DNA from: a bacterium
Lineage (GTDB): Bacteria; Patescibacteriota; Patescibacteriia; UBA1558; GWA2-36-10
Assembly: GCA_018653315.1 (NCBI GenBank)
Contig: JABIAL010000015.1
Coordinates: 1-37,132, forward strand
Length of the DNA: 37,132 nucleotides
Direction of reading: 5' to 3'
Part shown: positions 35,574-37,132 of the stretch, one piece after another
Numbering within the stretch: position 1 is the stretch's first letter
Layout of the letters: each line of letters opens with the position of its first letter
Notes under the pieces: generated by a model
Seen by the model: only the letters and a program-made list of their open reading frames with translations
Database searches by the model: none
Told to the model about the DNA's origin: nothing
Program-made: the position numbers and the translations under genes

Positions 35574-36557
35574 CTACACCTCGCTAATTACATCAAAACC
35601 CTTAAAACTACCTGTTAAGGCTAGCCCTATAATCTTTCCTTTGACTAATTTTTTTTCTCTTATTTTTTTAGCTATTTGATTAAAAGTGGCTCCGGAACCA
35701 ACTGCATCATCGATTAATAAAATATTATTAAAAACTTTATTTTCACCTAAAAAAATAGTCTTATCTACATTATTAATTCTATCTTTTAATTTACTTAAAG
35801 TTTTTTGTGGTACAGTAATTTCAGTGTTGACCTTAACAATGTTTATTTTTGGTAATTTAAAAGAAAACTTTTTTTCTAATTCTTTTTGTAATTGAATATT
35901 TCTAGCAACAGTAGGAGGGACAAAAGATACAGCATCAATTTTAGCAATCTTAATTAAATTTAAAACTGGCTGTTCTATAATTTGAAAAATTTTATTGATT
36001 AACTCTCTATTCTGTGATTGTTTCGCATAAAGCAATAATGAACCTAATTTAGTTTTACCAAATCTTTCTATACTATAAAAATCAAGATAATAAACCTGAT
36101 CTATATAAACTTGTTCAAAAGATTGTTTAAATTTCTCTAACCCTGAAATCAATCCTGTTTCATTATTTTTAAATTTATTATATTTATCTAATGTTTTAAC
36201 GTAATCACTTACTGTTTTTTCTACTGGTAAATTATTATGCTCACACCAATAATTAAATCCCTTTACTCCAGCTAAAAAATCTCCATTGGGTGTAATAAAT
36301 AAATAATTTTTTTCTATAATATCAGCATTATTTTTATCTGAAATAGTAATATTCTTAAAATTTGAGAATGTTTTAATCGTATAAAAAACATTCGGAGGTG
36401 TGCCAGTTTTACTTAAAATCTCTTGCTCTAACAATTTTTTTAATTGTCTAAAAACTGCTTGCTTGCTAATTTCAAGATAAGAAACCAAATCATTTGGCCT
36501 AACGCTTTTATTTTTTCTAACAAAATTAACGATTTTTTGTGCTGTGTTAGTTGTCAT
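35574..36557 (-). CDS. Winged-helix regulator fused to a ComFC-like phosphoribosyltransferase domain
   Basis: This is a 327-residue protein. Residues 1-62 form a winged helix (AQKIVNFVRKNKSVRPNDLV, then YLEISKQAVFRQLKKLLEQ, then LSKTGTPPNVFYTI). Residues ~75-130 are an unrecognised segment (YLFITPNGDFLAGVKGFNYW, then LPVEKTVSDYVKTLDKY). The C-terminal half is a phosphoribosyltransferase fold with FVPP and the PRPP-binding loop ILLIDDAVGSGATF (about 279-292), similar to ComFC. The pairing of wHTH and PRT recalls PurR of Bacillus, suggesting DNA binding tuned by PRPP or a nucleotide; that is inference. The start is the ATG at 36557; the longer TTG form would run into the operator. It probably represses its own promoter through the palindrome at 36575-36599. 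Confidence 0.82.
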   Translation of the reverse strand: MTTNTAQKIVNFVRKNKSVRPNDLVSYLEISKQAVFRQLKKLLEQEILSKTGTPPNVFYTIKTFSNFKNITISDKNNADIIEKNYLFITPNGDFLAGVKGFNYWCEHNNLPVEKTVSDYVKTLDKYNKFKNNETGLISGLEKFKQSFEQVYIDQVYYLDFYSIERFGKTKLGSLLLYAKQSQNRELINKIFQIIEQPVLNLIKIAKIDAVSFVPPTVARNIQLQKELEKKFSFKLPKINIVKVNTEITVPQKTLSKLKDRINNVDKTIFLGENKVFNNILLIDDAVGSGATFNQIAKKIREKKLVKGKIIGLALTGSFKGFDVISEV

Positions 36558-36574
36558 ATTTTTATAGTTTACTA

Positions 36575-36599
36575 TTGATAGTTTACTGTAAACTATCAA
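36575..36599. promoter_or_regulatory. 25-bp perfect palindromic operator
   Basis: Half-sites TTGATAGTTTAC and GTAAACTATCAA surround a central t at 36587. A third direct half-copy, ATAGTTTACT, lies at 36564-36573, 14 bp from the equivalent bases. The palindrome covers the -10 region and most of the spacer of the promoter for the regulator gene, as expected for an autorepressor. Confidence 0.8.
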
Positions 36600-36608
36600 C
36601 TATGTCAA
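36580..36608 (-). promoter_or_regulatory. Promoter of the wHTH-phosphoribosyltransferase gene
   Basis: On the minus strand consensus TTGACA (36608-36603) and TAAACT (36585-36580) are spaced 17 bp, giving a leader of about 16 nt before the ATG at 36557. The operator palindrome overlaps the -10 and spacer. Confidence 0.7.
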
Positions 36609-36708
36609 TAAACCTCCTCTTATTTCCTAAATACTCTAAAATTATAACAAATTTAAAGGAAAATAACAATCTAAATTTTTACTAATATTAGCCAAAATTA
36701 ATAAAATA

Positions 36709-36755
36709 TTATTCACGACATTTTCATTACTATTCACGACATTTTTTGATCAAAA
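36709..36755. repeat. 47-bp repeat, copy 1 (two TATTCACGACATTTT elements plus palindrome)
   Basis: Elements TATTCACGACATTTT begin at 36710 and 36731, 21 bp apart, followed by the palindrome TTTTGATCAAAA (36744-36755). It matches copy 2 at 46 of 47 positions. Confidence 0.9.
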
Positions 36756-36783
36756 TATAATAAAAGCTAATAAAATAAGAGGT

Positions 36784-36830
36784 TTATTCACGACATTTTC
36801 ATTGCTATTCACGACATTTTTTGATCAAAA
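36784..36830. repeat. 47-bp repeat, copy 2
   Basis: Elements TATTCACGACATTTT begin at 36785 and 36806, 21 bp apart, followed by TTTTGATCAAAA (36819-36830). It differs from copy 1 only at the purine in CATTRCTATT. A 28-bp AT-rich spacer separates the copies. Confidence 0.9.
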
Positions 36831-36834
36831 ACAC

Positions 36835-36866
36835 TATAATTCTCTTGTTTTATTAGTCTATATAAT
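36835..36866 (+). promoter_or_regulatory. Candidate -10 boxes for the rightmost glycosyltransferase gene
   Basis: TATAAT occurs at 36835-36840 and 36861-36866 upstream of the ATG at 36880; neither has a strong -35 box at proper spacing. If the first is used, the second 47-bp repeat would occupy the -35 zone, suggesting activator dependence or repression. A further TATAAT at 36871-36876 is too close to the ATG. Confidence 0.35.
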
Positions 36867-36879
36867 ATATTATAATACT

Positions 36880-37132
36880 ATGATAAAAGACAAAAACATA
36901 AAAGGCAAAAAAATCCTCTACCTAGTCACTCAGACAAAATGGGGTGGAGCACAAAAATATGCGCTAGAATTAGCCCAATATTTCAGTAAAAACAATGAAG
37001 TTCATATTGCTTTTGGCGAAATAAATGATCAAAATCCAAAATTCTTGGCTTTGGCCAAAAAAATGAAAATCAAAACCATTCCAATCCAAAATCTCAAAAG
37101 AAAAATCGAACCAAAAAAAGAAATATCTGCCG
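36880..37132 (+). CDS. GT4-family glycosyltransferase, N-terminal part
   Basis: The open frame starts at the ATG at 36880-36882 and runs off the right edge; 84 residues are visible. KKILYLVTQTKWGGAQKYALELA contains the GGAQ glycine loop at the start of GT4 enzymes. It reads away from the repeat array and the HTH regulator, so that region may control it. The leader is AT-rich with no Shine-Dalgarno sequence. Confidence 0.85.
   Translation, partial: MIKDKNIKGKKILYLVTQTKWGGAQKYALELAQYFSKNNEVHIAFGEINDQNPKFLALAKKMKIKTIPIQNLKRKIEPKKEISA

What the first reader, a model, noticed from the sequence alone, without database searches (positions are those of the whole stretch)
36600..36879. Four-copy TATTCACGACATTTT array between divergent genes
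Two 47-bp repeats differ at a single base. Each has two 15-bp elements exactly 21 bp apart (two helical turns, so on one face) and ends with the palindrome TTTTGATCAAAA. This is the arrangement of cooperative regulator sites or iterons. The core TTATTCACG is one base from the DnaA-box consensus TTATNCACA, so an origin-like or DnaA-responsive element is possible, though no dnaA or dnaN is near. It is unrelated to the adjacent 25-bp operator, so two regulators may meet here. No gene is seen in this stretch.
Basis: partly seen in the sequence, partly recalled or inferred. Interest (0 to 1): 0.65.

Follow-up and report, generated by a model that had tools for sequence, protein, structure and literature searches.

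The report
LytTR-like operator array before glycosyltransferase gene
A repeated DNA motif in front of a sugar-transferase gene looks like the docking site of a known class of bacterial switch protein (LytTR regulators), yet no gene for such a switch was found in this small-genome bacterium or in any sampled member of its class.

Summary
Two 47-bp units (36709-36755, 36784-36830), one base apart, each carry two copies of TATTCACGACATTTT at a 21-bp period. One full unit and part of another lie on contig C17 before the same glycosyltransferase gene, apparently the allele of a second, related population in a mosaic assembly. The 15-mers are identical across the alleles (0 of 49 aligned sites differ); fourfold sites of the gene differ at 8 of 19. 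The palindrome TTTTGATCAAAA is not conserved. The array is not an origin: dnaA-dnaN and the GC-skew switch are on contig C2, and the window's skew is uniform.

TTCACGACA-N12-TTCACGACA has LytTR-operator geometry. A scan of about 85,000 genomes found it 102 times (about 8 expected). 37 of 79 intergenic-hit loci carry a LytTR gene against 1 of 24 in-ORF loci; 24 lie within 300 bp. In this genome the array is the only such site, and no LytTR gene was found in it or in 381 genomes of its class. Best reading: a cooperative, LytTR-type regulatory array placed between an ancestral promoter and the gene, regulator unknown. It works like a LytTR operator; membership is not shown.

The parts
36709..36755 (+). 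Unit 1 (47 bp): two TATTCACGACATTTT elements 21 bp apart, then TTGATCAAAA
36712..36741 (+). TTCACGACA-N12-TTCACGACA, pair 1 (LytTR-type direct-repeat site)
36784..36830 (+). Unit 2 (47 bp), one base different from unit 1
36787..36816 (+). TTCACGACA-N12-TTCACGACA, pair 2
36835..36840 (+). TATAAT after pair 2, also present in the C17 allele; its -35 position overlaps the downstream half-site
   Evidence: consensus match only
36756..36761 (+). TATAAT after pair 1; TATCAT in the C17 allele
36615..36705 (+). Ancestral promoter/leader shared with relatives (CTCTAAAATTATAAC; ACTAATATTAGCCAAAA, matching the N-terminal codons of relatives, here ending in a stop)
   Evidence: alignment by eye
36880..37132 (+). 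Start of the GT4-family glycosyltransferase gene (cut by the contig end); the C17 allele is full length, 396 aa
35574..36599 (-). Divergent gene: winged-helix plus phosphoribosyltransferase-like protein; the ATG at 36557 is the likelier start. Neighbour, not shown to bind the array

Best explanation
The array is a double operator. Each 47-bp unit holds two 9-bp half-sites (TTCACGACA) with a 12-bp gap, so two protomers of a regulator bind one DNA face cooperatively, in the way LytTR-domain regulators do, and two units give up to two dimers. It sits between the gene's ancestral promoter and its start codon. It most likely controls transcription of a single cell-surface glycosyltransferase gene from promoter elements whose -35 positions overlap the downstream half-sites. 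SHOWN: the repeats, their geometry, conservation between two alleles, uniqueness in the genome, and the match to sites that lie next to LytTR genes elsewhere. INFERRED: that a protein binds it, that this protein has a LytTR-like fold, and the sign of regulation (activation slightly favoured, because the overlapped -35 sequences are poor).
For: Geometry equals the published LytTR operator (9-bp direct repeats, 12-bp gap; PMC6193735). The exact pair occurs in 102 stretches of about 85,000 genomes, against about 7.5 expected at equal base frequencies. 37 of 79 intergenic-hit loci carry a LytTR protein against 1 of 24 in-ORF hits; 24 are within 300 bp, mostly divergent from natAB-like ABC operons or upstream of the LytTR response regulator itself. 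In 34 such genomes, 7 of 9 pairs beyond the one per genome used to pick it also have gap 12, of 31 gaps allowed. Between alleles the 15-mers differ at 0 of 49 sites, the coding stretch at 47 of 252, fourfold sites at 8 of 19.
Against: No LytTR domain in the assembly (curated Pfam model; own profile on 98.6% of the bases, best E 0.21), in 381 class genomes, and in only 3-4 of 380 across the phylum. The exact site is unique to this genome within the class. Bases outside the 18 fixed ones fit the LytTR-site consensus no better than AT-rich DNA. The nearest TATAAT is 19 nt after pair 2, whereas about 30 is seen at the Bacillaceae sites (by eye).
Confidence: 0.58

Rival explanations
1. A cooperative operator of a regulator of another family (for example a winged-helix or lineage-specific protein); the resemblance to LytTR sites is convergence or chance.
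For: LytTR genes are absent from the genome and class; the site is absent from relatives; flanks do not fit the LytTR-site consensus.
Against: Exact 9-mer and exact 12-bp gap of a site class strongly tied to LytTR genes.
Confidence: 0.3
2. Origin of replication or DnaA-responsive iterons.
For: TTATTCACG is one base from TTATNCACA at two of the four elements.
Against: dnaA-dnaN and the skew switch are on contig C2; the window's skew is uniform; a single-contig relative puts dnaA about 330 kb away; no TTATNCACA in the array.
Confidence: 0.02
3. An RNA element: the array is transcribed from the ancestral promoter and acts as a structured or protein-binding leader.
For: It lies downstream of a promoter/leader conserved in relatives; an inverted repeat surrounds unit 2.
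Against: Folding z-score -1.4; no Rfam match; the arms of the inverted repeat are not kept complementary in the second allele.
Confidence: 0.06
4. A selfish or mutational tandem repeat without function.
For: Lineage-specific, absent from 20 family genomes.
Against: 15-mers invariant between alleles while fourfold sites differ at 8 of 19; only two units per allele, at one locus.
Confidence: 0.04

Closest known systems
LytTR-family operators (AgrA, ComE, VirR; HdrR/BrsR of Streptococcus mutans)
   Same: Two 9-bp direct repeats with a 12-bp gap on one DNA face, upstream of a regulated gene.
   Different: Two full sites in tandem 75 bp apart; no LytTR gene in the genome; TATAAT closer than usual.
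The TTCACGACA-N12-TTCACGACA sites between natAB-like ABC operons and LytTR genes in Bacillaceae, and at other loci in Bacteroidota, streptococci and clostridia (one search set)
   Same: Identical 9-mer and gap; T-run after the second half-site.
   Different: There the LytTR gene is often adjacent; here the target is a glycosyltransferase and no LytTR gene is known.
DnaA boxes and plasmid iterons
   Same: Short direct repeats at about two helical turns; TTATTCACG is near the box consensus.
   Different: No origin context, no replication gene nearby, conserved core extends past the box.

Membership tests
LytTR-type operator | Two about 9-bp direct repeats with an 11-13 bp gap | tested here: met
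   TTCACGACA-N12-TTCACGACA twice in the window and again on C17
LytTR-type operator | Half-site sequence shared with sites beside LytTR genes | tested here: met
   102 exact hits; 24 loci with a LytTR gene within 300 bp
LytTR-type operator | A LytTR-domain regulator encoded in the genome | tested here: not met
   None in 98.6% of the assembly; the assembly is incomplete and mosaic
LytTR-type operator | Repeats about 10 bp upstream of a -35 element | tested here: inconclusive
   -35-like hexamers overlap the half-sites; TATAAT at +19
LytTR-type operator | Bound by a LytTR protein | not testable with these tools
   Needs a binding assay
DnaA-box origin / iterons | Located at the skew switch or near dnaA or a rep gene | tested here: not met
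DnaA-box origin / iterons | TTATNCACA boxes | tested here: not met
   None in 36600-36879; two TTATTCACG only

The most novel reading that the evidence does not exclude
A bacterium of a class in which no LytTR domain was detected carries, at one surface-sugar gene, a duplicated LytTR-type operator under purifying selection. It would be read by a protein of another fold that converged on the same DNA code, or by a recently acquired LytTR regulator missing from the assembly.
Probability: 0.3. Interest if true: 0.5.

Novelty: new variant of a known kind. Interest (0 to 1): 0.36.

Why it matters
Gene regulation in these small-genome bacteria is little known. A defined operator with an identifiable half-site, at one surface glycosyltransferase gene and nowhere else, gives a concrete handle. 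Finding the protein that reads it would show either horizontal gain of a LytTR switch or a different protein reading the same DNA code.

Tried and rejected
DnaA/oriC. RNA element. Palindrome TTTTGATCAAAA as operator: not conserved on C17. Tandem duplication of array plus gene as the reason for two copies: considered, then set aside, because several contig ends overlap at 83-88% identity, which points to two populations. Plasmid or phage origin: no convincing similarity; one viral contig holds the pair. A literature search for the 9-mer gave, among the 40 papers listed of 252, nothing on LytTR sites; papers on the NatR binding site were not found in the library. A spacing test over a whole family of genomes could not be run as planned and was replaced. 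Chance matches: about 24 of the collection hits lie inside ORFs and look like chance or coding repeats.

Full report
OBSERVATION. The array is real. 15-mers TATTCACGACATTTT start at 36710, 36731, 36785 and 36806; the two 47-bp units (36709-36755, 36784-36830) differ at one base. The longest exact repeat of the 280-bp stretch is 26 bp against a maximum of 16 in 2000 Markov simulations. Three more copies lie at the end of contig C17, cut by the contig end, upstream of the same glycosyltransferase gene. No other pair with 3 or fewer mismatches of 18 at gaps 11-13 exists in 868,660 of the 880,741 bases.

TWO ALLELES. In family relatives the glycosyltransferase gene is one locus, mostly flanked by a divergent GT4 cluster on one side and, in several, an S-layer-like gene some 5 kb away on the other. 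C35 (the window) holds the left half and C17 the right half of that locus. Their ends overlap at 85.6% identity; other contig ends do the same (C26/C35 86.9% over 1.2 kb, C3/C34 88%, C5/C31 83%). The simplest reading is that the assembly is a mosaic of two related populations, so the two arrays are alleles rather than duplicates. Between them the 15-mers differ at 0 of 49 aligned sites, the 49-bp leader at 3, the inter-unit stretch at 6 of 29, the coding stretch at 47 of 252, third codon positions at 32 of 84 and fourfold sites at 8 of 19. The 15-mers are therefore conserved; the palindrome TTTTGATCAAAA is TTTTGATAAAAA in both C17 units and is not.

PLACE. Relatives share a promoter-like TATAAAATTATA and a short leader just before the gene, whose N-terminal codons (such as ATGCCTAATATTAGCCAAAAC) are visible. 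The window retains CTCTAAAATTATAAC and ACTAATATTAGCCAAAATTAA (now ending in a stop) at about 36630-36705, and the array lies between this relic and the present ATG at 36880. Of the 20 other family genomes none has the 15-mer.

NOT AN ORIGIN. dnaA-dnaN are on contig C2 (7984-10716) with TTATTCACA boxes nearby, and the GC skew of C2 changes sign there; the window's skew is negative throughout; in the single-contig relative G020 the skew switches in the 200-220 kb sample, where dnaA lies (211 kb), while the glycosyltransferase gene lies at 912 kb of 1,035 kb.

WHAT THE SITE RESEMBLES. Two 9-bp direct repeats with a 12-bp gap are the geometry of LytTR-family operators (PMC6193735). TTCACGACA-N12-TTCACGACA was found in 102 stretches of the genome collection against about 7.5 expected at equal base frequencies (own arithmetic; no control word could be scanned), and in one viral contig. 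79 of the loci are intergenic and 24 lie inside ORFs (viral one included). A LytTR profile finds LytTR proteins in 37 of 79 intergenic loci and 1 of 24 in-ORF loci; 24 lie within 300 bp of the site, commonly divergent from it. The first downstream ORFs are ABC ATPases, many followed by an ABC-2 permease as in natAB (16 of 57, against 3 of 57 distal ORFs), and LytTR response regulators (5 of 57 against none among the 25 commonest families of the distal ORFs). In 34 hit genomes, 7 of 9 further pairs again have gap 12 of the 31 gaps allowed. So the 9-mer pair is a LytTR-type operator elsewhere.

THE PUZZLE. No LytTR domain was found in this genome, in 381 genomes of its class, and in only 4 of 380 drawn from the phylum, 3 over the cut-off. 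In the class the exact pair occurs only here. Either a LytTR regulator was gained and is missing from the incomplete mosaic assembly, or another protein reads the array, or the match is chance. I put a LytTR-type reading at about 0.58 and a cooperative operator of any family at nearly 0.9. Because a tested feature (a LytTR gene in the genome) is not met, the array is described as working like a LytTR operator, not filed as a member.

MECHANISM. Likely: two protomers bind each unit on one face; the downstream half-site covers the -35 position of a TATAAT element (36756-36761 for unit 1, 36835-36840 for unit 2), and only the second TATAAT is kept in both alleles. Activation at -35-poor promoters or roadblock/repression of the ancestral promoter are both possible; I lean slightly to activation. 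This part is inference.

Noticed in passing
G000 contigs C26/C35, C17/C35, C3/C34, C5/C31 ends: Contig ends overlap at 83-88% identity; the assembly appears to mix two related populations, so completeness and 'duplicate' genes should be read with care.
   Followed up: partly
36561-36600: ATAGTTTACTATTGATAGTTTACTGTAAACTATCAAC: inverted TAGTTTAC repeats at the start of the divergent winged-helix/phosphoribosyltransferase gene, a likely autoregulatory operator. A 53%-identical homologue exists in one relative (G009:C20), on a different contig from its glycosyltransferase gene.
   Followed up: partly
L008:10508-10668 (C17:17806-17966) and L248:15217-15389 (C38): A roughly 165-bp imperfect palindromic element shared by two contigs at 84% identity, perhaps a small mobile or terminator-like repeat.
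   Followed up: no
L160:1033-1791 (G397:C171): A LytTR response regulator with a LytS-like kinase gene beside it in a distant member of the same phylum: LytTR systems are rare but present in this phylum.
   Followed up: partly
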